A DNA stretch of 64,000 bases from Ktedonospora formicarum (lineage in GTDB: Bacteria > Chloroflexota > Ktedonobacteria > Ktedonobacterales > Ktedonobacteraceae), in NCBI RefSeq assembly GCF_016587355.1, contig NZ_BNJF01000002.1, positions 372,001 to 436,000 of the forward strand, in the 5' to 3' direction. The notes beneath the pieces are model-generated. The model did no database searches and was not told where the DNA came from. It saw nothing but the letters and a program-made list of their open reading frames with translations. Shown here piece by piece: positions 21,724-36,281 of the stretch. The position numbers and the translations under genes are program-made. Position 1 is the stretch's first letter. Each line of letters starts with the position of its first letter.

Positions 21724-24700
21724 TCATAGTATCTTAGGCGACACGACACTATGTTCCTGCACCAATGTTGCTTCGCGTGGTTTTTGACGCTCAGTCAACC
21801 AGAAATCGCAGAGACGGCTGAGAAGCAATGCACTAGCAGCACTGGCCCCCAGAATAAGCCAACTTCCCAAAGAAGGTGTAACAAAATGGAGCAGATCACG
21901 CAAGGGTGGTAGAATCAAAGACGCAATAAGAAGAGCTGTTGAGCCAGCGACAGCGCCCAGAACAGGACGGGTCAGCACCCCTTCAGAGCGGCCAATATCC
22001 AGCGCCTGTGTAAGCTGGGTCGCCACTATACTGGCAAAGGCAACTGTACGAGCCTCAGCACGCCCGATAGGAAGTGTAAGCCCATAAGCAGCCAGTGCGG
22101 GAAGGGAGCTAATGAGAGCACGGCGCAAGATATCATTACGCAAGGGCCGATCTAGCGCAGCAGTCCCTTCGCGTTTGAGAGCGGCAAGATGACGATGTTC
22201 CGGCTTCTGTAATACCACAGCCAGAGCAGGTAAAATATCCGTAATGGCATTCATTGCAAGGATCTGACGTACAGTGAGAGGCATTCCCAACCCCAACGCA
22301 CTTGCCCCGACAACCAATCCAAGCTCGCCTAAGTTCCCGCCAAGTAACAGACCAAGAGCACGTCGAATGTTACGCCAGAAACTGCGCCCTTCGACAAATG
22401 ACTCAACCAGGGTCAACAGGTCATCATTCATAATCACAACATCAGCAGTCTGTCGAGCAACCTCTGTTCCCGCAACTCCCATAGCCATACCAACATCCGC
22501 GAAGCGTAACGCAGGCGCATCGTTCACACCATCGCCCGTCATGGCAACAGTATGACCTCTTTCACGCAGGCATTCTATGATACGCAATTTGTTCAGTGGT
22601 GTCGTCCTGGCGATGATGGAAGCATGCTCCAAGCGCTCACCAAGCTCTTCATTACTGAGGCTAGTCACATCCTCTCCAGTAAGTATTTCGCCTCCATCGA
22701 ACAGTCCAGCCTCCTCGGCGATAGCGCGGGCAGTAGCAGGGTGATCACCAGTAATCATCATAACGCGTACACCTGCTTCCTGACAGCGGTGAACAGCTTT
22801 GTGTACAGTAGAGCGCAAAGGGTCGCTAATAGCAACGAAGCCCAGGCATACAAGCGCTTGAGGATCTTCAATGGAAGTGGTGACAGAACTCTCTGCGACC
22901 ATGAGGACACGCAGGCCGCGTCTAGCATACACATGTGCTCTCTCTAAGAGCGCATGACGCCGAGTTTCATTCAGCTTAAGTTTCAAACCTTTGACATAGA
23001 CCCATGTACAGCGAGCCAGAAGGGCTTCAGGTGCTCCTTTGAGATGTATGCGTCCCTGGGCAAGGGTCGCAGAGAAAGAACGAACAGGGTCAAAAGCCAG
23101 TTCATCATCATGAGCCACACAGATTTGCCTCGCCAGTCCAGCGCTCAATGCCCCCTCAATAATAGCGTAATCCGTTGGATGTGCTCTGGCATCGGGTGCA
23201 TTGGGGTGAGGGCAGGCCAAAGCTGCAACTGTAAGCACATATCTATGAGATCGAGATAACTCTTCTAGCAGATTCGCATCTTTTGTGGCATCCGCGACCA
23301 TGCTGAGTTCAAGCTGCCCTTTGGTTAGAGTGCCTGTTTTATCTGTACATACAGTATCTACGCGCCCCAATGCTTCTACAGCGGAGAGACGCCTTACAAG
23401 CGCATCACGGTTCTCTAAACGGTGGGCAACTCCAGCCTCTCCCACCTTAGCAAGCAAAGGCAAACCTTCGGGCACACCTGCCAGGGCAATTGATGCGCCC
23501 GTCGCTAGCAGGAATTTTAGTGGTTGCCCCCACACAAGACCAGTGACAATGACGAATCCTCCACCTAGAATAGAGACAGGCAATAAAACTTGAAGCATAC
23601 GTGCAAGCCTCGTACCCAGAGGGCTTTGCTCAGTTTCGTCCGCCGCCAGAGCTACAGTAGTTCCCCCCATACGTGTTTGATCACCAACTGCAACAACAAG
23701 AGCTTTCCCTGTACCAGTCGTCACGTCGCTGCCTGCGAGCACAATACGAGTGTTCTCTGTGCCTTCAGTCGCGTGCTTTTCCACTGGAAACGATTCGCCT
23801 GTGAGGAGTGCTTCATCCACTTCCAGCCCTTGCGCCTCAATAACGCGTGCGTCCGCAGCGATACGATCACCTGGAGCCAGAGAAAGAATGTCACCAGTTA
23901 CCACTTCATTTGCAGAAATGCTTGCGATACGTCCATCGCGCAAGATATGAGCATTTGTACTTCCCAGGCGTTGAAGAGATTGCGCCATCTTGTCAGATTT
24001 ATGTTCTTGCCAGATGCCTATTCCAACATTTGCCAGAATGGTTGCGCCAATAATGCCAACATCAGCACCAGCCCCCAGCAGGAGAGAGAAGATGGCACCA
24101 GCCCCAAGGATAACGTTAAGGGGAGAACGAAGTTGATCAAGAGCCGCCAGAAGTAGCCTGTTACGTTGAGTATGAGGAGATACATGGTGCTGACGTAATG
24201 TGGCCTCTTTACTAGTGAGTCCTCCCTTACTGCTGTGCAGACTTTGCATTACTTGCTCAATGCTCTGCTGCCCCCAACGCTCGGGATGAGGATCAGAGAG
24301 CCGTGAAAGCGATGACACTGCACGCTTTGGGCCTCTAAAGCGAAGCCAGCCTTCAGCAAGAGTGCTGAGTGTCGCTAGATAGACCACACGAGAAGCTACC
24401 ATGATCCCGGGCGCACCACGCCATCCCCAAAAGATGCCAACGATATTGGAGAGGCACGAGAGAATGAGAGAATCGCGTGCTGTTGCCTCTCGCTTCGCGC
24501 CTGCAATGATAATCGCGGTAAGGGCCTGGAAATCAGGTGCCAGCAAATCAGCCTGCGCGTAGAAGCGCTTCTGTCCACCCATCAACCCAATTGCCAGGTC
24601 ACACGCATCGAAAGCTGCCGCTGTATCTGCATTGTCTGAAACAAAGGCCACGCGTGCCCCCTGAGCTTGTTTCTCCCGAATGAATGCAAGCACATCATCT

Positions 24701-26592
24701 TTCAGGCATAACGGAATTTCGGCGCGCCTGGCTATGGCTTGTGTTATCTCATGAGACTCACTGGTAAGGATCAGCAACTCGACACCCAGAGATTTACAAA
24801 TCCGCACGAGAGGCGGGATATCTGGTACTAATCGAGGACGCAGAGCCAGCACTCCAAGCAGTTGCTCAGAGCGTCCCTGCGACTGCTCATAATACAAAGC
24901 CAGAAGCATAGCTCCGCGATGTCGCTGTCTAAAGGCGTCTGGAATACGGGAAAAATCATGTATAGGGCCAAACTTATACCATCCCTGCGGTGTCAAAGCC
25001 TGAATTGTACTCCCATCAAAGCGAGCCAGGGAGACCTGAACGGGGCCGCGTTGTTTGAACACAGAACCCCAAGGTGAACCCGCTGCCGACGACATATTTG
25101 CGGCGAGCGTAAGCAGATCATTGGTGCTGATCTCATCCGAAAGTGAGAATATATCAGCTAGCTCTAAACCATCTGTCAAAACCCGCGCCCCATCCAACAT
25201 TACCATCTGAGGGAGGCAGATAGTCCGATGCTTACGTGTTCCCACCACCACCACACCTGAATTGAGCACATAGGTTGAGGCAGCGAGATCGGCATTTTCC
25301 GCGCCAGCCACCGCAGGCCGAGCATTGACGAGAACGAGTGAAGCCAGCGTCTGACTAAAAGAACGCGTCAATATGGCAGTCCCAGCGGCATAGAGTAATG
25401 AGAGAGGAGCAAGGATTTGAAAATAACGGTCATAAGGAGAAAGTGCAGGTGGAACCGGATGTGGCTTAGGCTGAAAAGCTTGAAATGAGGGCGCGTGCTG
25501 GATCTGGATAAGAAAAGGGCCTCCATAGAGCTGACAACCAGGAGGCAGGGTGCTTCCCGATGTAATCGACAACGGAATACCTTCACGCAGAATTCCTATG
25601 CCAGAGCCCTCAAGAACCTGAGAGACAAGCGGTACTTTCTCACCAGATGCTAATTGAAGCATTGTACCAGGGCTCAAGATAGGTTCGGCAGCCTCCTGCT
25701 CTTCGTAGCGATGCCAGGCTCCACGGCGCCTATACACCTCCGTCAACAGGCGCAACGATTCGCAACCAATAGTGACCAGGCCCAATGCGCTATTGCCAAG
25801 CGTGAGAGTAATAATACTTGGGATGTTTAAAAGCAGATCCCCGGTGGTGCGTCCAACAAGCTTACGTAGTCCGTGACGAAGGGGAGGAATTCCCTGCAAT
25901 ATGCTGATTACGCTGGCAATATGTATAGCGCTTGTCGTTCCTGGAAGAGGCTCAGTCATACCAAAGAGAGAGCGAAAGGCGAGAACACTGCCCCCCGCTA
26001 TCGAACCAATTGTACGGATAACACTTTGCACAAGAGGCCCAGGATCCAATGGATAGGAAGGACGATCCTCATCTGGTAATTCGGGAAGCTCTACATCCGA
26101 GATCTCCGAGATCAGATCATCAAACAGTGTTTGATGTTCCGCATATTCTATCAGCACACGTCCCGTCAGCAAGTGCAAGCGCGCGTGAATGTTTGGATAT
26201 TTGGCAAGTACCTCTAGCACGCTATTGGCAACATGGGGATCACGATTGAGTCCGCGCACAGTAATATGCACTCGCTTTGTCTCCCCAGTTTTCTCATGGT
26301 AGATGGAGGGAGAGCGTGTGTTTTTTTCGACACCAGACTCTTTATCCATCTGGTGTAGATCAAATTGGGCTAGGGAAGCAAGTATCGCTTGCTCATCAAG
26401 CAATGCGGGATCGTAAAGGATAAGCACATTTTGCGTGGAAGTGTTGGCCCGTATCCCTTGAATACCCTCCAACTGGTGCAGGTATACTTCCAGAGGGCGC
26501 AGATTGCTATCCATAAAATGGGGTAAGTGTACACGCAAACGTCCCGGCAAAGAATGAACAATTTGAGATTCCTCTGCAAGAGCAATATTCAT
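21724..26592 (-). CDS. Giant double P-type cation ATPase (CtpI-like)
   Basis: 1622 residues, close to mycobacterial CtpI (about 1630). Two ferredoxin-like HMA domains come first (residues about 5-80 and 105-185). A degenerate P-type half follows: LDGARVLTDG near 464 replaces the DKTGT loop and VAFVSDNADTAAAFDACDLAIGL mimics the hinge, so it cannot be phosphorylated. The second half is complete: LLTGESFPVEK near 930, VPEGLP in the ion-binding helix near 1040, CTDKTGTLTKG with the phosphorylated Asp near 1083, TGDHPATARAIA, and MTGDGVNDAPALR near 1350, then six hydrophobic segments. PEGL rather than CPC argues against a copper pump; the cation is unknown. AAGGA precedes the ATG by five bases. 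Two small genes upstream are probably co-transcribed. Confidence 0.92.
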   Translation of the reverse strand: MNIALAEESQIVHSLPGRLRVHLPHFMDSNLRPLEVYLHQLEGIQGIRANTSTQNVLILYDPALLDEQAILASLAQFDLHQMDKESGVEKNTRSPSIYHEKTGETKRVHITVRGLNRDPHVANSVLEVLAKYPNIHARLHLLTGRVLIEYAEHQTLFDDLISEISDVELPELPDEDRPSYPLDPGPLVQSVIRTIGSIAGGSVLAFRSLFGMTEPLPGTTSAIHIASVISILQGIPPLRHGLRKLVGRTTGDLLLNIPSIITLTLGNSALGLVTIGCESLRLLTEVYRRRGAWHRYEEQEAAEPILSPGTMLQLASGEKVPLVSQVLEGSGIGILREGIPLSITSGSTLPPGCQLYGGPFLIQIQHAPSFQAFQPKPHPVPPALSPYDRYFQILAPLSLLYAAGTAILTRSFSQTLASLVLVNARPAVAGAENADLAASTYVLNSGVVVVGTRKHRTICLPQMVMLDGARVLTDGLELADIFSLSDEISTNDLLTLAANMSSAAGSPWGSVFKQRGPVQVSLARFDGSTIQALTPQGWYKFGPIHDFSRIPDAFRQRHRGAMLLALYYEQSQGRSEQLLGVLALRPRLVPDIPPLVRICKSLGVELLILTSESHEITQAIARRAEIPLCLKDDVLAFIREKQAQGARVAFVSDNADTAAAFDACDLAIGLMGGQKRFYAQADLLAPDFQALTAIIIAGAKREATARDSLILSCLSNIVGIFWGWRGAPGIMVASRVVYLATLSTLAEGWLRFRGPKRAVSSLSRLSDPHPERWGQQSIEQVMQSLHSSKGGLTSKEATLRQHHVSPHTQRNRLLLAALDQLRSPLNVILGAGAIFSLLLGAGADVGIIGATILANVGIGIWQEHKSDKMAQSLQRLGSTNAHILRDGRIASISANEVVTGDILSLAPGDRIAADARVIEAQGLEVDEALLTGESFPVEKHATEGTENTRIVLAGSDVTTGTGKALVVAVGDQTRMGGTTVALAADETEQSPLGTRLARMLQVLLPVSILGGGFVIVTGLVWGQPLKFLLATGASIALAGVPEGLPLLAKVGEAGVAHRLENRDALVRRLSAVEALGRVDTVCTDKTGTLTKGQLELSMVADATKDANLLEELSRSHRYVLTVAALACPHPNAPDARAHPTDYAIIEGALSAGLARQICVAHDDELAFDPVRSFSATLAQGRIHLKGAPEALLARCTWVYVKGLKLKLNETRRHALLERAHVYARRGLRVLMVAESSVTTSIEDPQALVCLGFVAISDPLRSTVHKAVHRCQEAGVRVMMITGDHPATARAIAEEAGLFDGGEILTGEDVTSLSNEELGERLEHASIIARTTPLNKLRIIECLRERGHTVAMTGDGVNDAPALRFADVGMAMGVAGTEVARQTADVVIMNDDLLTLVESFVEGRSFWRNIRRALGLLLGGNLGELGLVVGASALGLGMPLTVRQILAMNAITDILPALAVVLQKPEHRHLAALKREGTAALDRPLRNDILRRALISSLPALAAYGLTLPIGRAEARTVAFASIVATQLTQALDIGRSEGVLTRPVLGAVAGSTALLIASLILPPLRDLLHFVTPSLGSWLILGASAASALLLSRLCDFWLTERQKPREATLVQEHSVVSPKIL

Positions 26593-28056: not shown

Positions 28057-28335
28057 TTACTGTTCATCCTTCTTTGCCTCCCCCGACGCTTTTTCAGAGG
28101 TCGTTCCAAGCGCATACACACACAATTCCTCAAAAGAAGCGCCATTTTCGAGCGCAATCGCATGCAATTTTTGGAAACTATCCATAATTTCAGATGGAAT
28201 GGAGCCGCCTCTTTCTTCCTGGAGCCAGAGGTGCTGAAATTGCAGAGGATGGAATTTGGGCGATGGCTCACCAATATAAATATTAAAAGGAGCCTTTGCT
28301 TCAGCAAAATCACAAGGAATCGTAAACTTTTTCAT
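28057..28335 (-). CDS. DUF2610-like protein, second tandem copy
   Basis: 92 residues beginning MKKFTIPCDFAEAKAPFNIYIGEPSP and containing IPSEIMDSFQKLHAIALENG and SFEELCVYALG. This matches a small family I know as DUF2610, found in scattered bacteria, with no known activity. It is a clear duplicate of the gene just upstream; the C-terminal half is almost identical. It starts 21 bp after that gene. The pair follows the giant TIR/NACHT gene on the same strand, so it is best viewed as part of that module. The frame 28050-28313 in another register is a shadow. Confidence 0.8.
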   Translation of the reverse strand: MKKFTIPCDFAEAKAPFNIYIGEPSPKFHPLQFQHLWLQEERGGSIPSEIMDSFQKLHAIALENGASFEELCVYALGTTSEKASGEAKKDEQ

Positions 28336-28356
28336 ATAAACCTCTTCTCAGTCGCA

Positions 28357-28632
28357 TTACTGCTCATCTTTCTGTGCTTCCCCTGGCACATTGTCAGAGG
28401 TCGTTCCAAGCGCATACACACATAGTTCCTCAAAAGAAACGCCATTTTCGAGCGCAATCGCGTGCAACTTTTGGAAACTATCCATAATTTCAGATGAAAT
28501 AGTACCACCTATGCTTGAAAGCCACTTGGCCTGATATTCAAGTGGATGAGCTTTCGCCCCAGGGCTCCCAATATAGATATCTATCAGACGTCGCTCCCTA
28601 CCAAAATCGCAAGGAATTGTAAATTTTTTCAT
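28357..28632 (-). CDS. DUF2610-like protein, first tandem copy
   Basis: 91 residues, MKKFTIPCDFGRERRLIDIYIGSPGAK, then SSEIMDSFQKLHAIALENG and VSFEELCVYALG, ending in a polar tail (GEAQKDEQ) shared with the next copy. The N-terminal half differs more between the copies than the C-terminal half, so the C-terminal helices are under stronger constraint or were recently converted. It begins 50 bp after the TIR/NACHT stop and has a box similar to that upstream of the TIR/NACHT gene at 28667-28682. Function unknown. Confidence 0.82.
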   Translation of the reverse strand: MKKFTIPCDFGRERRLIDIYIGSPGAKAHPLEYQAKWLSSIGGTISSEIMDSFQKLHAIALENGVSFEELCVYALGTTSDNVPGEAQKDEQ

Positions 28633-28682
28633 GGAAGAGCTCCCAACCTTTCAAAACACAGAATGACTCTTATCACACGCAT

Positions 28683-31600
28683 TTATAGTAATCCTATAAT
28701 CGAAATTACATCATTATACAACTGTTGATCTAAGCGCCCTACATTGCGTATTAAAATCTTTCCAATATCCTTTTCCAGGATAAAAATTGGGCGAAGTGAA
28801 TCTGGCTGCTCGATGATCGTGTTGAGCGCCTTTACTATTCGTTGGCGCTGGTTCTGTGGAGTTTTTTCATCGCCTGCAATACTTACCAGAAGTTTGGCGA
28901 CAGTATACACAACCGAAGCACTTGGATGCGTCAAAAGATCAATACATTTTGATGTGACACGCTCGTTGATATAGCGCAAATTTTCTACCGTTTGTACAAC
29001 CGCAGTCTGCACCTCAGCAACATCATGCAGAGCGCTCAAGAATGCATCGTTGAATGAGGCTGGCATATGGTGTATATAACCAAGAAGTTGGGCGGCGCCA
29101 GCTTTCCCCCAAAATGGGACATGATACATAATTGCTTGCACAAGCGTTGGCCCCAGCTGATGCTTAGAGATCAAATTAATCACAGCAGCCGGTGAAAATT
29201 GAGCCACTTTTCCCGCAATTTCCAGAAGTGTCGATGTGCGATAATAGGTATCCGGTTGATCATCAAGGTCCTCTTGAAGCGAAGACGTTAACCACATAAA
29301 CAAAAGCTCGAGTAATTGACTGTTTTCGCTAATAGCGCGTGCTACATTGATGACTCTAGCGGGGTCAAATGCCAGGTTATAGAGGGATGCACCACTTATC
29401 TCTTCTACTGAGGATGCTGGCAAACTCAACGCACATGCGGAAAGCTTCTGATTTAAGAGAAAAATAATCTCATTTTGAGGCAATGTTTCTTCTTCAAGCA
29501 GTAGACTGACTTCAACGAGCAGTTGCAAGATAGTGGCGAGGCGATCAGGAATATACTTGAAACCATCCAGATAAGAAGGAGGATAATGTGATATCGCTTC
29601 TATAACACGCTTTTCCATCTCTTCCGTGATATCACGTTTAAAATGATAGTTATTTAAACGTATCCATGAGTGCAGAAGCAGTTTTTGCGTTTTTCCCTGC
29701 CCATGCTCAAGATGTTGAATGAGCGCTTCCAGAACATCTAAGGAGCAATACGATATGTTGCGTAACAGAGAAGAGACTCCGCCTTCCCCCTCCTCATTGG
29801 TATTCACATACTCAATCAATTGTTGAAAGATAGTGACATCATCATGAACCACGTTATAGCAAATCCAACTGATAGATGTGGAAACAGATCTATTTTCAGA
29901 GTACAGCCGTTTCTGTTCCTGAGCAATTCGTAAGAGCACATCCAACCCAAGTTGCGATGTGCGGTAATCACGTTGTCGCTTCTGCACATAGACCTGTGAG
30001 CTATGCAGAACAATATTCGCTCGATAGCGCCCAATATCACTTCCATACTCAATCAGATCTATTAGACAAGGAACAGTACTTGTGTTTAGCTGACCGGCTT
30101 CAGCCAAAAGCAAACCAGCATAAGCCCAGACCATCTGATCTGGAGGATTTTCTACCCATAAGCTTAGAGATGATAAAAGCGAAGGTTCGACACTATGCAA
30201 ATAGGGAAGCAAGGGATACATAACGGATATCTCCTGCGTTTCCAGCAGAGAATGAATGACATCAACAACAGTTGAAGTCAAGGCAAGACCATCGAGTCCA
30301 TTGGCAGCCGCCACTTTGAGCAAAGCTGAGATGGCCTGTGCTTGTCGATCTTCTTCCAACAGCTGACGCCAGAGATCATCGGTACTGGTTTGATCTGGTT
30401 TTAGAGAGAGCAGATCATCAATAAACGCAGCTACAATGATTGGTGTCTGAATTTCTGCCTCATGGAGATGGTCATGCAATGCCAATAATTGAGTGGATAA
30501 AAGACCTTGGCTTTTCGCACGATACCATTCACCACGCAAAGAGTGAATAATCTCCGCCTTTTGCTGAACAAATTGCCCATTTTCCTCTAAATAGGGAGAT
30601 AGCAGCAGAAGCGTCTCCGCTAATTGTGGTTCATTATGTATCTTTTTTATCGCCAACAACGCCTGAGACATCATTGACCAACGTTTGGTGCTATTTTCAT
30701 AGAGGGCCAGCCGTACCAACGCTCGTGCATAGTTATTTGGATCATCGATATTTCTGGCAGCATCAAGTGCTTGATTTTTTATCTGTTCTTGTTGAAGCAT
30801 CGGCACAGATTGTATCAGCCGTTCAAAGGCATAAGAACGGCGCAGTGGATCAGTGATCTGCTCCGCCGCCTCAATAGCAAGGGCGCGAAAATCAAGATCT
30901 TGCCAATAGTAGGCATAGCGAGACAACCGCCAGAAGGCACGCGAACGTATAACAGGATCGCTTATGGCGAGTACGCGCTTGACTATCTGGGAGAGAAATT
31001 CATTCGGAGGTAAGGATGCCAGTGTGGGGTCCAGGAATTGAAGAACAAGCGGCTGAAACGTAAGGGGAAGCAACAGTGTGGTCACTAAGGCATCGGTCAA
31101 CAAATCGGAATGAGCCTGGTACTCGACACCTGTAAAGAGAATCATCCCTGTATAGAACAGGTATTTCATGTACTCAGAGCTACTCTGGTGAGCAACTGTC
31201 AGGGCATCACCCACAATATCGTCATCCGTATCAAAGATCGGTGGAATAGCAATAGGCTGCAAGCGGGAATGTTCATTATACTTACGATTGCGAGCAAACT
31301 GCATATTTATAAGGGCAGATGCTGAGCGAAGCGTTTTTCCCAAAGTATCTAGAATAACCGCAAAGCTATAAAGCGGCTCATCACCCGTTAAACCAGATAG
31401 CCAATCTGCCCAGATTTCTGCATTTAGCCGAGGAAGCAATGGTGCTTTGTCAAGAAGTATCTGATCATAATGCACCGGTCGAGGTAAAACTGAAGCAAAT
31501 GTACGGTAAAAGAGATCTACCACATCCCCCAATTGATCTGTTGGAAGAAGGCTTTCCACTGGAAGGAGCGTTTGACCAATCTGCTCTTTTTTCCCAAAAA

Positions 31601-34600
31601 GAATGAGAGTATCATACAAACTCTGCTTCCGTTGTCGTAACTGATTCAGCACCAGAGTTGCCAGAGGCAGGGTGGCGCTATTGTGGAAGCTATCCGTCAG
31701 CGTTTTGATGGCTGGCTGTGTATCAATGATCAACAAAGCGAGCAGGGCATGAGCGCGCTGTACATGCTGATGAGCATAATGCCATTCACGCCAGAGCCTC
31801 CTTTTGAGCGCCTGGGGAGTCTGCCTCTGGCGCAATGCACCAAGAAACATCCCTGTTAAGGGTGAGTCATTGATTATCGCCTGAGGAGTAAACCTGGGTA
31901 TATGCTTCCGCGCTTGCTCTGCCTGCCACACACATTCTGTATCAAGATAGACAGCAATTTGGCGAGTAAATTCATTTATATCATCTCGACTCCACTCTTC
32001 TCTCCAGTACTCACGGGTTTTCAGCCACTCAAAATGTTGTTGTTTTTCAGTTTCTTCCAACGGAAAAAGGAAAACCAGATCATCTTTCTGAAGGAGATGT
32101 GTCGCCAGACCTTCATCAGAGATCCCCCCATACAGGAGGACCATCAAACGTAGCCAGAGAAGATTACTTTGGATAAAAGAAACAAGTGTAGGTTCGGCAG
32201 TCAATGCTTTACGCATTGGCAGGGTCTCGGAAGAAACGGGAAGATCATGCTGCTGGTGAATCAAAATTCGAGTGCTGGGATACCCCCACTCAACATCATC
32301 ATAAGGATAGGCTCGAATTAACGCCCGAAGAAGCGCCTCACTATACCATTGATTCTCAGCAACCAGGGAGGCTGCTGCCAGACCTAATTCTTTTTGACCG
32401 GTCTGAATATTGAGAATAGCTGTTTCAAGGTACTCCTCGAATAGTTGTTGATGAGGCTCGCTATAGAGAGTTTTGAGGCTACGTGAGATGCTCTCGCGTA
32501 ATGTTGAAAACTGTCCAGCCCCCTCCCGATCGGCATAACTTGTCAACAAGCGCTGGATAATATCACGGACAATATCTTCAGAGACCTGAGCCATTTCAGG
32601 AATAGCAGATACAATCAATAACGCACTCCGTGGAATAAGATTGCCCAACGAATCATCGGCCTTGAGCAGCGCGGTCAGAAGCCGCTGGCGTGCGTTAGAG
32701 CCCCAATCCATACTGACCTGTCCCAATGCCATCAGAATTGGTTCGCGCCAGCGTGGATCATCCAGCTTTTCACGAATAGCCTGTGCCGCAGAGGAAGCAT
32801 GATTCTTTTCGCGGATCAGGTTGAGAGCCGCCAGATATTCCTGAAATGTTAGATGCAAAAAGCCATAAAGCCCATTGCTTCTTTCCGAGAGCAGGCCCAC
32901 ATCCTCACGGATACGACGAAGAAAAGCATCAACCTCTAACTCAAATGAAGGTGGAAGATGATTGATATCTTCTCGTCGATACTGAGCCAACGCTATAGTA
33001 ATAATCTCCTTGAGATCACTCTCTTCAATTGACCCATTCGATGACGATTGATGGATACGAGCAGCAACAGGCGATAAGACATGGGTTATTTCCGGCTTGG
33101 TCAGGCCACTCCCATGATCAGTAATACGCCAACCTTCTTCGATCAGAATATCTAATGCCTTGCTATATAACTCTACACGTTGCTCTGGAAGCCGTTGCTG
33201 ATTTTTACGATAGACTAGAGCCAAAATAGTAATCAACAGCGGGTTGCTGGCTAGCTCTCGTACACGTGGACGCTGTGGGTCATAGATCGCTCTTTTCAGC
33301 CCTTCAGCTTCTTGTTGGGCCCTCATCTTTCTAGCTTCAGCCTCTTCATAATGGAACAGGATCTGGCTGGTTGCCAACGTCCAGGCATCACAGAAATGTT
33401 CAACCGCGACCTGCTCCATAGGCTGAACAGTAACATGTGCGACCTGCCCGGTAATAGGTCTGACATGATAGCCAACGATACGGCTGGTAATAAGAATCTG
33501 ATTGCCTCCCGTTTTAGCTGGCACTTCTTTGGCTAATCGCTCCCAGAGGGCAGATTTTTTGTTTGCCGAAATATTTTTTCCGCAAGCATTGATCCAATCG
33601 TCAATAAAAATTTCGATAGCACGCACAATATCATCGCGCTGGTTAGCAACGGTAATTTCATCCATGCCATCAAGGATAATGACAGCTTTCCCTTCCCGTA
33701 GATGATATTTGATCAAGGCATTGAGTTTTGATTTGGGGAGATCGGGTGCCTGCCCAAGCCATGTATGATAGCCCAGAAAATCTGCCAGCGAGAGTGTCTC
33801 CAGATTCTTACGTGCCTTCTGATAAGCTTCAGCAAACTCTGAGACTCGTACTAAGACCGGGAGCCGAGCCGGACCGATATTGATCTTCGTTGTATCAGAT
33901 GCCTCAATCTTTGGATCAACCTGATAGGCTGGAACCACAACTGAAGCATCACCCCTCTCACACGCCAGAGCCAAATTCAACGCAATCCAGCGGGCAAGCG
34001 TTGTCTTCCCACTACCAGGATCGCCAAGAATAACCATCCAACGCTCCTGCTGAAATGCATCGCCAAGGGTGATGAGAGGAGATTTTTTTTCAGAAACATT
34101 GGTCGCCTCATTTGGGCGATCACGCTCAACCATCGAGGGCATAAAAGGGTTGATAATAATAGCCTGGCGTTCTGCATGATGCATCACCAGCGCAATCTCA
34201 GAAGGTGAAAGTTCCTTCTTGAGGTGAGCTAGCAGATCAGCTGTCTCCGCACGCAACAGTTCCTGTGATTGTTCACGCTCGTAGCTTGTTGCACGATGGC
34301 CTTTCAATGCCACATAGACTTTCTCCAGTGGAATTGTTGGCAAGCGCATATCACCACCAAGGCCACGGAGTTCCAATTCGCTATGTCGATTAATCAGCCA
34401 GTTTAAGTAAGATTGAAGAACATCTTCACCATTGTCTAGAATCGCCAATTCGGGAGCAGATGATTGTTCAGTCTGAGAAGCTAGATTTTCTTCCAGCAAT
34501 GTCAACATTGCTGAACCAATATGATCTTCAAGTAAAAAAGCAAATTCTTGCAAATGGTGATAAGGGTAATATCTATCCTCCTGTGGGATAGTATCTATCT

Positions 34601-35588
34601 CATCGCCTATCTCAAAACGGGTAAAAAAGCGGATATTCTTATGCAATTGCTCCATGTGCCTATAAAGATCATCAAGCCGCATCTGAACTTGCTGGTTACT
34701 GCGATAGACAAAAATTGCTGGGTGTCCAGATCGCTGTTTCGCAGCACGAGCAGCATCTTCGTATTCCCACTCAATTAATGAATCAAAGTAAGTCCCATCG
34801 TCTCGCACAATATCACGAGGGAGCGGTGCACCCATCTGTGATCCACAAATAACGACAACAATATCGCAGGCCGATGGTTTCAGCAGTTGTTGTGCTCGCT
34901 GAATGTCCTTTGTATCTGAATTGGAGATGACAGAAGAGATCTGAACAAGCGATCCAAAACTCTCATCCTGATTGAGTTGCTGAACAACATGGCGAACAAT
35001 CTGCTGTTCCTCAACAGCATCTGGGGTTGAGGCGAGAAAGAGTTTCAATTGTCTGGTTGAAGGACGTGGAGGCGCTTGGTGTTGTTTTTGTTTTCTAGAA
35101 GTACGAGCAATCTGCTCTTTCTGCTCTAGATCGTTGGCTACGCCATAAATGCCTTCAACAATATTTGTCCAGGCTTCATCACGCTGTTCTACTAACCAGG
35201 ACATCACAGGCTTAGGGCGATTCTCCGCATCTAGTGGTAGCGCCTGCAACGTACTAAATGGAGCTCCATCCCACATAGTCGAACGTACAATAATTGGAAT
35301 CACGCGCGCGGTGTTTGCTTCATGCCGCTCCATTGCTCTGATCATCTCTTTGCTCCAGCAAAATGGAGAAGCCATGAATGAGGAACTGATAAGGAGGAGA
35401 ATAATTTGGGCAGTATTCAATTTTTCTTCAATTTTTGCTTCCCATTTAGCCCCTGGACTAATATCACTGTCCGTCCACACATTGATAATATTTCGTCTCT
35501 GAAGGATTTTTAGATGCTTTTCCAGTTCCTTCCGCAATTCAATATCATCATGTGAATAAGAGATAAACACATTAAATGGTTTGGGCAT
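28683..35588 (-). CDS. TIR / DUF4062-like / NACHT STAND protein with long helical repeat tail
   Basis: 2301 residues. Residues about 4-135 form a TIR domain (FNVFISYSHDDIELRKELEKHL, NVWTDSDISPGAKW, IILLLISSSFMASPFCWSKEMI; the Glu after CWSK is the expected NADase residue). Residues about 180-360 resemble DUF4062 (KLFLASTPDAVEEQQIV, DIVVVICGSQMG). The NACHT NTPase follows: Walker A GDPGSGKTTL near 521, Walker B VIILDGMDEI near 636, ILITSR sensor, then a winged-helix-like region (YGFLHLTFQEYLAALNLI). The last 1300 residues are helical repeats. Such proteins sense a trigger with the repeats, oligomerise and fire the TIR, as in bacterial NLR-like phage defence. Start ATG 35588 has GGGGGAG; a longer frame to 35630 is unsupported. 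Two DUF2610-like genes follow. Confidence 0.9.
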   Translation of the reverse strand: MPKPFNVFISYSHDDIELRKELEKHLKILQRRNIINVWTDSDISPGAKWEAKIEEKLNTAQIILLLISSSFMASPFCWSKEMIRAMERHEANTARVIPIIVRSTMWDGAPFSTLQALPLDAENRPKPVMSWLVEQRDEAWTNIVEGIYGVANDLEQKEQIARTSRKQKQHQAPPRPSTRQLKLFLASTPDAVEEQQIVRHVVQQLNQDESFGSLVQISSVISNSDTKDIQRAQQLLKPSACDIVVVICGSQMGAPLPRDIVRDDGTYFDSLIEWEYEDAARAAKQRSGHPAIFVYRSNQQVQMRLDDLYRHMEQLHKNIRFFTRFEIGDEIDTIPQEDRYYPYHHLQEFAFLLEDHIGSAMLTLLEENLASQTEQSSAPELAILDNGEDVLQSYLNWLINRHSELELRGLGGDMRLPTIPLEKVYVALKGHRATSYEREQSQELLRAETADLLAHLKKELSPSEIALVMHHAERQAIIINPFMPSMVERDRPNEATNVSEKKSPLITLGDAFQQERWMVILGDPGSGKTTLARWIALNLALACERGDASVVVPAYQVDPKIEASDTTKINIGPARLPVLVRVSEFAEAYQKARKNLETLSLADFLGYHTWLGQAPDLPKSKLNALIKYHLREGKAVIILDGMDEITVANQRDDIVRAIEIFIDDWINACGKNISANKKSALWERLAKEVPAKTGGNQILITSRIVGYHVRPITGQVAHVTVQPMEQVAVEHFCDAWTLATSQILFHYEEAEARKMRAQQEAEGLKRAIYDPQRPRVRELASNPLLITILALVYRKNQQRLPEQRVELYSKALDILIEEGWRITDHGSGLTKPEITHVLSPVAARIHQSSSNGSIEESDLKEIITIALAQYRREDINHLPPSFELEVDAFLRRIREDVGLLSERSNGLYGFLHLTFQEYLAALNLIREKNHASSAAQAIREKLDDPRWREPILMALGQVSMDWGSNARQRLLTALLKADDSLGNLIPRSALLIVSAIPEMAQVSEDIVRDIIQRLLTSYADREGAGQFSTLRESISRSLKTLYSEPHQQLFEEYLETAILNIQTGQKELGLAAASLVAENQWYSEALLRALIRAYPYDDVEWGYPSTRILIHQQHDLPVSSETLPMRKALTAEPTLVSFIQSNLLWLRLMVLLYGGISDEGLATHLLQKDDLVFLFPLEETEKQQHFEWLKTREYWREEWSRDDINEFTRQIAVYLDTECVWQAEQARKHIPRFTPQAIINDSPLTGMFLGALRQRQTPQALKRRLWREWHYAHQHVQRAHALLALLIIDTQPAIKTLTDSFHNSATLPLATLVLNQLRQRKQSLYDTLILFGKKEQIGQTLLPVESLLPTDQLGDVVDLFYRTFASVLPRPVHYDQILLDKAPLLPRLNAEIWADWLSGLTGDEPLYSFAVILDTLGKTLRSASALINMQFARNRKYNEHSRLQPIAIPPIFDTDDDIVGDALTVAHQSSSEYMKYLFYTGMILFTGVEYQAHSDLLTDALVTTLLLPLTFQPLVLQFLDPTLASLPPNEFLSQIVKRVLAISDPVIRSRAFWRLSRYAYYWQDLDFRALAIEAAEQITDPLRRSYAFERLIQSVPMLQQEQIKNQALDAARNIDDPNNYARALVRLALYENSTKRWSMMSQALLAIKKIHNEPQLAETLLLLSPYLEENGQFVQQKAEIIHSLRGEWYRAKSQGLLSTQLLALHDHLHEAEIQTPIIVAAFIDDLLSLKPDQTSTDDLWRQLLEEDRQAQAISALLKVAAANGLDGLALTSTVVDVIHSLLETQEISVMYPLLPYLHSVEPSLLSSLSLWVENPPDQMVWAYAGLLLAEAGQLNTSTVPCLIDLIEYGSDIGRYRANIVLHSSQVYVQKRQRDYRTSQLGLDVLLRIAQEQKRLYSENRSVSTSISWICYNVVHDDVTIFQQLIEYVNTNEEGEGGVSSLLRNISYCSLDVLEALIQHLEHGQGKTQKLLLHSWIRLNNYHFKRDITEEMEKRVIEAISHYPPSYLDGFKYIPDRLATILQLLVEVSLLLEEETLPQNEIIFLLNQKLSACALSLPASSVEEISGASLYNLAFDPARVINVARAISENSQLLELLFMWLTSSLQEDLDDQPDTYYRTSTLLEIAGKVAQFSPAAVINLISKHQLGPTLVQAIMYHVPFWGKAGAAQLLGYIHHMPASFNDAFLSALHDVAEVQTAVVQTVENLRYINERVTSKCIDLLTHPSASVVYTVAKLLVSIAGDEKTPQNQRQRIVKALNTIIEQPDSLRPIFILEKDIGKILIRNVGRLDQQLYNDVISIIGLL

Positions 35589-36281
35589 TGGGGCTCCCCC
35601 TTCATCAATAACAGATTCCGCTCCTAGCACTAGGCAGGGCGAAGAATGCTCTTATCACACGCGCATCTCCCGTTCATATCGCACCATTGCGTGTTTCATC
35701 TCAACACTATAGCTGTAGTCAAATACAATGAAACATCTACTGATGAGCAGAAGAGAGAGATGCGTTGCATCCAGATACTTGTTTATCTCCTTTTCCCCAT
35801 GCTATACCTCCATTGCCCCATTATTATGCCGCCGCTTGAATAATCCTAAGTTAATATTCATTCTATCAGGAATCCGGAGTGAATGGAAGAGTCAAATGAC
35901 CAATTTTTCTCTCAGAATCTAGAAATGCTCTGACATTCGATTTCTTCTCGTTCGTTAGGGAGACAAATCATATATGGTGAGTGGAATGATAAGGAATTGA
36001 AGAAGCCAGTTAGCTCTCGCAAGAGGGCGTTTGTCTATTGTCGTGAAGGTATTGACATCTTCGCAGGGACAGCGTATTGGCGCTATCACATTGAAAGCCT
36101 CGTAGGCAGCGGCAGGTAGGTAAGATTGACCTGGGAGAGGAAATGTGAGGACTGCGGCTCTATCACTGACATGACAGCAGTCCTCGTACGGCTGGCAGAA
36201 TACAAGAATTACCGTGAGTGACACGGGAAGTCAACGCCTGTGAAATGCATGGCAGGCTTGAGATATATCAACATAAGTTGC
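35589..36281. other. 693-bp intergenic stretch upstream of the TIR/NACHT gene
   Basis: No convincing gene. It holds CCTAGCACTAGG (35623-35634), a 12-bp palindrome 35 bp before the TIR/NACHT start; a box at 35649-35666 that recurs before both DUF2610-like genes; and a 9-bp inverted repeat GAGGACTGC/GCAGTCCTC at 36147-36185. An 89-codon minus-strand frame (35955-36224) has no recognisable features. Confidence 0.5.

What the first reader, a model, noticed from the sequence alone, without database searches (positions are those of the whole stretch)
28057..35588. Candidate NLR-like defence module: TIR-DUF4062-NACHT giant plus two DUF2610-like genes
A 2301-residue protein combines two N-terminal effector-type domains (TIR and a DUF4062-like domain), a NACHT switch and about 1300 residues of helical repeats. 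It is followed on the same strand by two tandem DUF2610-like genes. TIR-STAND proteins are known in phage defence, but this double-effector layout with DUF2610 partners is one I do not recognise. DUF2610 could be an inhibitor, activator or sensor subunit, and its duplication hints at target diversification.
Basis: partly seen in the sequence, partly recalled or inferred. Interest (0 to 1): 0.8.

Follow-up and report, generated by a model that had tools for sequence, protein, structure and literature searches.

The report
NLR-like giant with constant DUF2610 partner
A bacterial immune-receptor-like giant protein carrying two probable NAD-destroying domains is encoded directly before two copies of a tiny, strikingly conserved protein of unknown function, and the same giant-plus-tiny pairing recurs in three other bacterial phyla with different killing domains swapped in, pointing to an undescribed two-part defence module.

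Summary
Window 35588-28683 (-) encodes a 2301-aa TIR–DUF4062–NACHT–helical-repeat protein. Two tandem DUF2610 genes follow at 50 and 21 nt spacing. DUF4062 is borderline by Pfam but is backed by close relatives. Both NADase-type domains keep the key Glu (E81, E275), and Walker A/B are intact.

A DUF2610 scan of 84,980 species genomes, plus independent searches with the giant's C-terminus, found homologous NACHT giants with DUF2610 just downstream in Cyanobacteriota, Bacteroidota and Actinomycetota. Their N-terminal effectors differ (CHAT, trypsin-like), so DUF2610 goes with the NACHT–repeat chassis, not with the effector. It is fused to an nSTAND1 protein in Nostoc.

The link is not universal: one cyanobacterial clade of giants (3 sequences) lacks DUF2610, and Alphaproteobacteria have DUF2610 without giants.

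DUF2610 is 51-86% identical between these systems, while the giants' C-terminal halves are mostly 18-29% identical to the window's. I infer an NLR-like abortive-infection receptor with swappable effectors and a constant co-sensor, guardee or regulatory subunit. Its role, and phage defence itself, are untested. This is a new variant of a known kind.

The parts
28683..35588 (-). 2301-aa NLR-like giant: TIR - DUF4062 - linker - NACHT - helical repeats
   Evidence: Intact ORF; Pfam TIR_2, NACHT, nSTAND3 and borderline DUF4062; homologous over residues ~380-2301 to giants in other phyla
35229..35570 (-). TIR domain (residues 7-120), key Glu E81
   Evidence: TIR_2 E 4.6e-16; PADLOC ThsB model E 1.1e-42 over residues 6-183; Glu aligned with Cat1 TIR; position
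34752..35045 (-). DUF4062 (TIR-like NADase family) domain (residues 182-279), motif SLIEWEYEDA, conserved Glu E275
   Evidence: Pfam E 1.2e-4, 22.7 bits vs cut-off 24.7; linked to DUF4062 proteins over the cut-off; above 2000 shuffles
34059..34436 (-). Linker between effectors and NACHT (residues 385-510); homology to the other giants begins about here
   Evidence: blastp starts at window residue 375-394 against giants with different effectors
32709..34058 (-). NACHT module (residues 511-960) with Walker A 522-529 (34002-34025) and Walker B 637-644 (33657-33680)
   Evidence: Pfam NACHT/nSTAND3; motifs; 36-53% identity to the other giants
28686..32711 (-). C-terminal helical-repeat region (residues 960-2301), putative sensor
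   Evidence: Alignment A2; mostly 18-29% identity to the other giants over residues 1380-2301
28357..28632 (-). DUF2610 gene, copy 1 (91 aa); departs from the near-invariant P16, F17, R42 and P47
   Evidence: PF11020 99.3 bits; alignment A3
28057..28335 (-). DUF2610 gene, copy 2 (92 aa), close to the family consensus
   Evidence: PF11020 119.1 bits; AF2 model pLDDT 83.5: beta hairpin + three helices; no PDB fold match
35649..35660 (-). 12-nt element GTGTGATAAGAG upstream of the giant's ATG
   Evidence: Second exact copy upstream of DUF2610 copy 1; 0.22 matches expected in the window; function unknown
28667..28678 (-). 12-nt element GTGTGATAAGAG upstream of DUF2610 copy 1

Best explanation
The three genes form one NLR-like immune operon. 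The helical C-terminal half of the giant, probably with DUF2610, monitors the cell for infection. A trigger makes the NACHT switch exchange nucleotide and oligomerise. This clusters the N-terminal TIR and DUF4062 domains, which deplete NAD+ and stop growth or kill the infected cell. DUF2610 is a constant small subunit that works on the chassis (linker, NACHT, repeats) rather than on the effector, most likely as a co-sensor or guarded bait. Shown by sequence: the architecture, intact catalytic and Walker residues, operon-like spacing, effector swapping on a homologous chassis, and recurrence of DUF2610. Inferred: oligomerisation, NAD+ depletion, phage trigger, and DUF2610 as sensor or bait.
For: Eight giants homologous over NACHT to C-terminus have DUF2610 just downstream on the same strand: the window, L014, L015, L019, L022, L023, L032 and L121. 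Six of them lie at most 50 nt apart or overlap; L014/L015 are about 1.3 kb apart with a gene between. L121 was found with the giant's profile, not with DUF2610. Effectors differ: CHAT in L019, L022, L032, L121 and trypsin-like in L014, L015; catalytic residues are visible in L014, L019 and L032. A Nostoc nSTAND1 protein carries DUF2610 at its C-terminus. DUF4062 is reported as a TIR-like NADase in antiphage Swarozyc and in TEP1, a NACHT protein (PMC13174449). The full-length giant C-terminus and DUF2610 both occur only in this genome of 47 in the class. DUF2610 identity between these systems is 51-86%, against mostly 18-29% for the giants' C-terminal halves.
Against: Three related giants (L080, L081, L123) lack DUF2610; they form one clade. 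Most DUF2610 loci of the scan (14 of 21) are in Alphaproteobacteria or other Proteobacteria, mostly beside an unrelated protein family, so DUF2610 has a role outside NLRs. No PADLOC hits in 10 flanking proteins, so the window is not a recognisable defence island. The DUF4062 call is below Pfam's cut-off on its own. No activity data.
Confidence: 0.55

Rival explanations
1. DUF2610 is a negative regulator or assembly chaperone that keeps the giant folded and silent, like an antitoxin or immunity protein for the NACHT chassis.
For: Small, tightly linked downstream gene, as many inhibitors are; present with three effector types, so it would act on the chassis. In Alphaproteobacteria a standalone DUF2610 precedes another large protein, as a dedicated chaperone might.
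Against: Three related giants have no DUF2610 nearby, so it is not needed to tolerate the giant in that clade. DUF2610 is far more conserved than its would-be partner's C-terminal half.
Confidence: 0.25
2. The genes are linked but DUF2610 is a passenger with an independent housekeeping or mobile-element role.
For: DUF2610 occurs without giants in Alphaproteobacteria, and a giant clade lacks it. In L014/L015 a gene on the opposite strand, TraG-like in L014, separates the two.
Against: Adjacency recurs in divergent lineages at 50 nt or less; it was recovered from the giant side too (L121); DUF2610 is fused to an nSTAND1 protein in Nostoc.
Confidence: 0.12
3. The giant is a STAND regulator of development, stress or kin recognition in a large-genome bacterium, not antiphage.
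For: Neighbours are metabolic, transport and regulatory genes with no PADLOC hits. The genome has 33 NACHT matches at E <= 0.001. Phage defence is untested.
Against: TIR, DUF4062, CHAT, caspase and trypsin swapped at the same N-terminal position is the pattern of conflict systems described by Kaur et al. (PMC7159879, PMC8195603).
Confidence: 0.25

Closest known systems
Bacterial NACHT/NLR-related defence proteins (bNACHT; PMC12169576)
   Same: NACHT domain linking an effector to a sensor region, with intact Walker motifs.
   Different: Two N-terminal NADase-type domains, about 1300 residues of repeats, and DUF2610 partner genes; bNACHT clade membership was not tested.
Swarozyc (DUF4062 NADase; PMC13174449)
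   Same: DUF4062 domain with the conserved Glu; predicted NAD+ hydrolysis.
   Different: Swarozyc has DUF4062 followed by an HTH/winged AUX domain that binds phage portal; here DUF4062 follows a TIR and precedes a NACHT.
TEP1 / NWD1 / NWD2 (eukaryotic DUF4062-STAND proteins; PMC13174449)
   Same: DUF4062 in front of a STAND NTPase and a large repeat region.
   Different: The eukaryotic proteins carry WD40 repeats; an extra N-terminal TIR or a DUF2610 partner is not described there.
Thoeris ThsB TIR
   Same: First 183 residues match the PADLOC ThsB model at E 1.1e-42.
   Different: TIR is fused to a NACHT giant; no ThsA-like gene among the neighbours scanned.
Effector-associated-domain conflict systems (Kaur et al. 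2020, 2021; PMC7159879, PMC8195603)
   Same: Constant NTPase core with interchangeable effectors and a small non-enzymatic partner domain.
   Different: EADs join core and effector by homotypic copies; DUF2610 is a separate small gene, not fused to the effector or the giant here. Neither paper mentions DUF2610 by name.

Membership tests
DUF2610 (PF11020) | Profile match over the curated cut-off | tested here: met
   99.3 and 119.1 bits vs cut-off 21
DUF4062 (PF13271) | Profile match over the curated cut-off | tested here: inconclusive
   Full-length match but 22.7 bits vs cut-off 24.7; relatives G1218 and Chlorohelix are over the cut-off. AF2 single-sequence model uninformative, pLDDT 45
DUF4062 (PF13271) | Conserved Glu of the S-x-x-[EH]-x-E-[YF] motif | tested here: met
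   E275 aligned with the Glu of all DUF4062 rows compared
Bacterial NACHT/NLR-related proteins | NACHT domain with Walker A/B between effector and C-terminal sensor region | tested here: met
Bacterial NACHT/NLR-related proteins | Antiphage activity | not testable with these tools
   needs expression and phage challenge
Swarozyc | DUF4062 NADase core with key Glu | tested here: met
   (sequence only; activity not tested)
Swarozyc | C-terminal HTH/winged AUX domain directly after DUF4062 that binds phage portal | tested here: not met
   DUF4062 is followed by linker, NACHT and repeats; portal binding itself not testable
Thoeris | TIR gene paired with a ThsA (SIR2/SLOG-type) gene | tested here: not met
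   No ThsA-like match among the module genes and neighbours scanned with PADLOC
Avs (antiviral STAND) | Match to PADLOC Avs models | tested here: not met
   No Avs model listed up to E 1
Effector-associated-domain (EAD) systems | Same small domain on the core protein and on an effector encoded by an adjacent gene | tested here: not met
   DUF2610 is a separate gene; giants carry no DUF2610 domain by Pfam

The most novel reading that the evidence does not exclude
An undescribed two-component bacterial NLR family in which a near-invariant 80-residue protein, DUF2610, serves as a detachable guardee or co-sensor for rapidly diverging NACHT-repeat giants with interchangeable effectors (TIR+DUF4062 double NADase, CHAT, trypsin). 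DUF2610 would be borrowed from a conserved factor that still exists on its own in Alphaproteobacteria, parallel to integrated decoys of plant NLRs.
Probability: 0.3. Interest if true: 0.82.

Novelty: new variant of a known kind. Interest (0 to 1): 0.62.

Why it matters
NLR-like STAND proteins with swappable effectors are known, but I found no description of this chassis with a constant DUF2610 subunit: DUF2610 appears in 2 of 5.39 million held papers, neither about this pairing. The module gives a first functional context for DUF2610, offers a possible bacterial case of a guardee or decoy subunit, and includes a natural fusion of two NADase-type domains, one of which (DUF4062) also occurs in human TEP1.

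Tried and rejected
Fold match of DUF2610 to PDB and viral structures: none significant, so no fold-based function. AF2 of residues 176-400 from a single sequence gave pLDDT 45, so its Foldseek list was discarded. DUF2610 in IMG/VR or phage genomes: none, so it is not evidently phage-borne. TIR-DUF4062 relatives in IMG/VR: none. PDB sequence search with a stretch holding the DUF4062 region: nothing significant. The idea that DUF2610 tracks the C-terminal half rather than NACHT was tested by separate trees: deep nodes are weak (support 32-81) and no conclusion was drawn. Weak A2 matches at E 1e-3 to 1e-12 cover short stretches only and were read as generic repeats, not as family members. A passing idea that DUF2610 resembles ribbon-helix-helix regulators found no support in the structure search. 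Limits: one genome-contig scan, pattern-seeded, so distant DUF2610 are missed.

Full report
What is there. The 2301-aa ORF at 28683-35588 on the minus strand is intact and carries TIR_2 (7-120), a DUF4062-like domain (182-279) and NACHT. Two DUF2610 genes follow it on the same strand, 50 and 21 nt apart. Walker A and Walker B are present. The TIR keeps a Glu (E81) aligned with that of the Cat1 TIR structure. PADLOC matches the first 183 residues to ThsB at E 1.1e-42.

Is DUF4062 real? Pfam alone is just below its cut-off (22.7 vs 24.7 bits, E 1.2e-4). A DUF4062 profile built from 25 proteins of the same phylum scores the segment above all 2000 shuffles (14.5 bits against a best of 12.8), and hhalign gives 77%. 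More telling, searching with the segment alone finds a Cryobacterium protein (E 2e-8) and G1218 (E 1.2e-5), and weakly a Chlorohelix DUF4062-nSTAND1 protein (E 0.08). G1218 and Chlorohelix exceed the Pfam cut-off; the Cryobacterium protein is borderline at 23.2 bits. All keep the Glu of the x-E-Y motif, E275 here. An AF2 model without relatives failed. I treat the domain as very likely. A 2026 preprint reports DUF4062 as a TIR-like NADase in antiphage Swarozyc and in human TEP1 (PMC13174449), so the giant probably carries two NADase-type domains. Whether both are active is untested.

Is the DUF2610 link conserved? In the window's class, 1 of 47 genomes has DUF2610 and 1 of 47 has the giant's full C-terminus: this one in both cases. 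A pattern scan of 84,980 species genomes found 21 DUF2610 loci. Six sit just downstream of a giant: Phaeodactylibacter MAG L019, Lewinella MAG L022, Neolewinella persica L032, Actinacidiphila L014, Catenulispora L015 and Rhizonema L023 (its giant split into two frames and lacking the N-terminus). In L014 and L015 about 1.3 kb with a gene on the opposite strand lies between. All are homologous to the window giant from about residue 380 to the C-terminus, with blastp E down to 1e-144. A search from the giant side in 218 genomes of the Rhizonema family found L121, again with a DUF2610 gene starting at the giant's stop. The giant-side searches also found L081 and L123, and a plasmid search found Anabaena L080, all without DUF2610. 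These three form one clade with 100% support. So among giants found without using DUF2610, 1 of 4 has it, and the three without it are one lineage. In the unrooted tree the pattern needs a single loss or gain. Deep nodes have weak support, and the seven other positives were found through DUF2610 or were the starting point.

Effector swapping. N-termini before the conserved linker differ: TIR+DUF4062 in the window, CHAT in L019, L022, L032, L081 and L121, trypsin-like in L014 and L015, caspase C14 in L080 and L123. L080 and L081 are 57% identical over the shared body but have C14 and CHAT, a clear swap. His/Cys or trypsin-type residues can be seen in L019, L032, L080 and L014. DUF2610 accompanies three effector types, so it belongs to the chassis.

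DUF2610 itself. AF2 with 23 sequences gives a confident model, pLDDT 83.5: a beta hairpin and three helices, with no PDB or viral fold match. Identity between the giants' DUF2610 proteins is 51-86%, and up to 80% to alphaproteobacterial ones, while the C-terminal halves of the giants are mostly 18-29% identical to the window's. The constraint on DUF2610 therefore is unlikely to come only from the diverging repeats; a conserved partner, the NACHT/linker, or self-assembly would explain it better. This is the reason for favouring a co-sensor or guardee, and it is an inference. A Nostoc nSTAND1 protein has DUF2610 fused at its C-terminus, and two cyanobacterial orthocaspases are reported with a DUF2610 domain (PMC8283722). 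In Alphaproteobacteria, DUF2610 stands before a different, fast-evolving protein family.

The duplication. The two window copies share 62% of nucleotides in the 5' half and 90% in the 3' half; codons that differ silently are 11 of 25 and 6 of 39. Recombination or gene conversion of the 3' half is the simplest reading. Copy 1 departs from the near-invariant P16, F17, R42 and P47 and may be diversifying or decaying.

Context. Ten other window proteins scanned with PADLOC gave no match; neighbours are transport, metabolic and regulatory genes. The genome has 33 NACHT matches.

Verdict. A real, recurrent, partly described type of system: a bacterial NLR-like giant with swappable effectors. The constant DUF2610 partner and the TIR+DUF4062 tandem look new. 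Function is unproven.

Noticed in passing
window 35649-35660 and 28667-28678 (-): Exact 12-nt GTGTGATAAGAG with similar flanks upstream of both the giant and the first DUF2610 gene; 0.22 expected by chance. Possible shared regulatory element or recombination footprint.
   Followed up: partly
L016-L018, L020, L021, L024-L028, L031 (downstream of DUF2610): Alphaproteobacterial DUF2610 genes are followed by a related, fast-evolving 470-720 aa protein family without Pfam domains in those scanned.
   Followed up: partly
L012:10001-10270 (Embleya plasmid): Divergent standalone DUF2610 near an oppositely oriented CHAT-domain protein.
   Followed up: partly
L014:8681-9889 (-): A TraG/T4SS DNA-transfer-like gene on the opposite strand lies between the trypsin-NACHT giant and DUF2610 in L014; L015 has a similar spacing.
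   Followed up: no
L032:10001-11164 and L019:8645-9250: In Neolewinella and a related MAG, DUF2610 carries a C-terminal extension, with TPR repeats in L032.
   Followed up: no
L080 vs L081: Giants 57% identical over the shared body carry different proteases (caspase C14 vs CHAT): an effector swap.
   Followed up: yes
L130:3980-6874 (Candidatus Chlorohelix plasmid): DUF4062 - nSTAND1 - FGE-sulfatase protein, another bacterial DUF4062 in the effector position of a STAND protein.
   Followed up: no
window 21724-26592 (-): Unusually long (1622 aa) P-type ATPase with an HMA_2 domain at the N-terminus.
   Followed up: no
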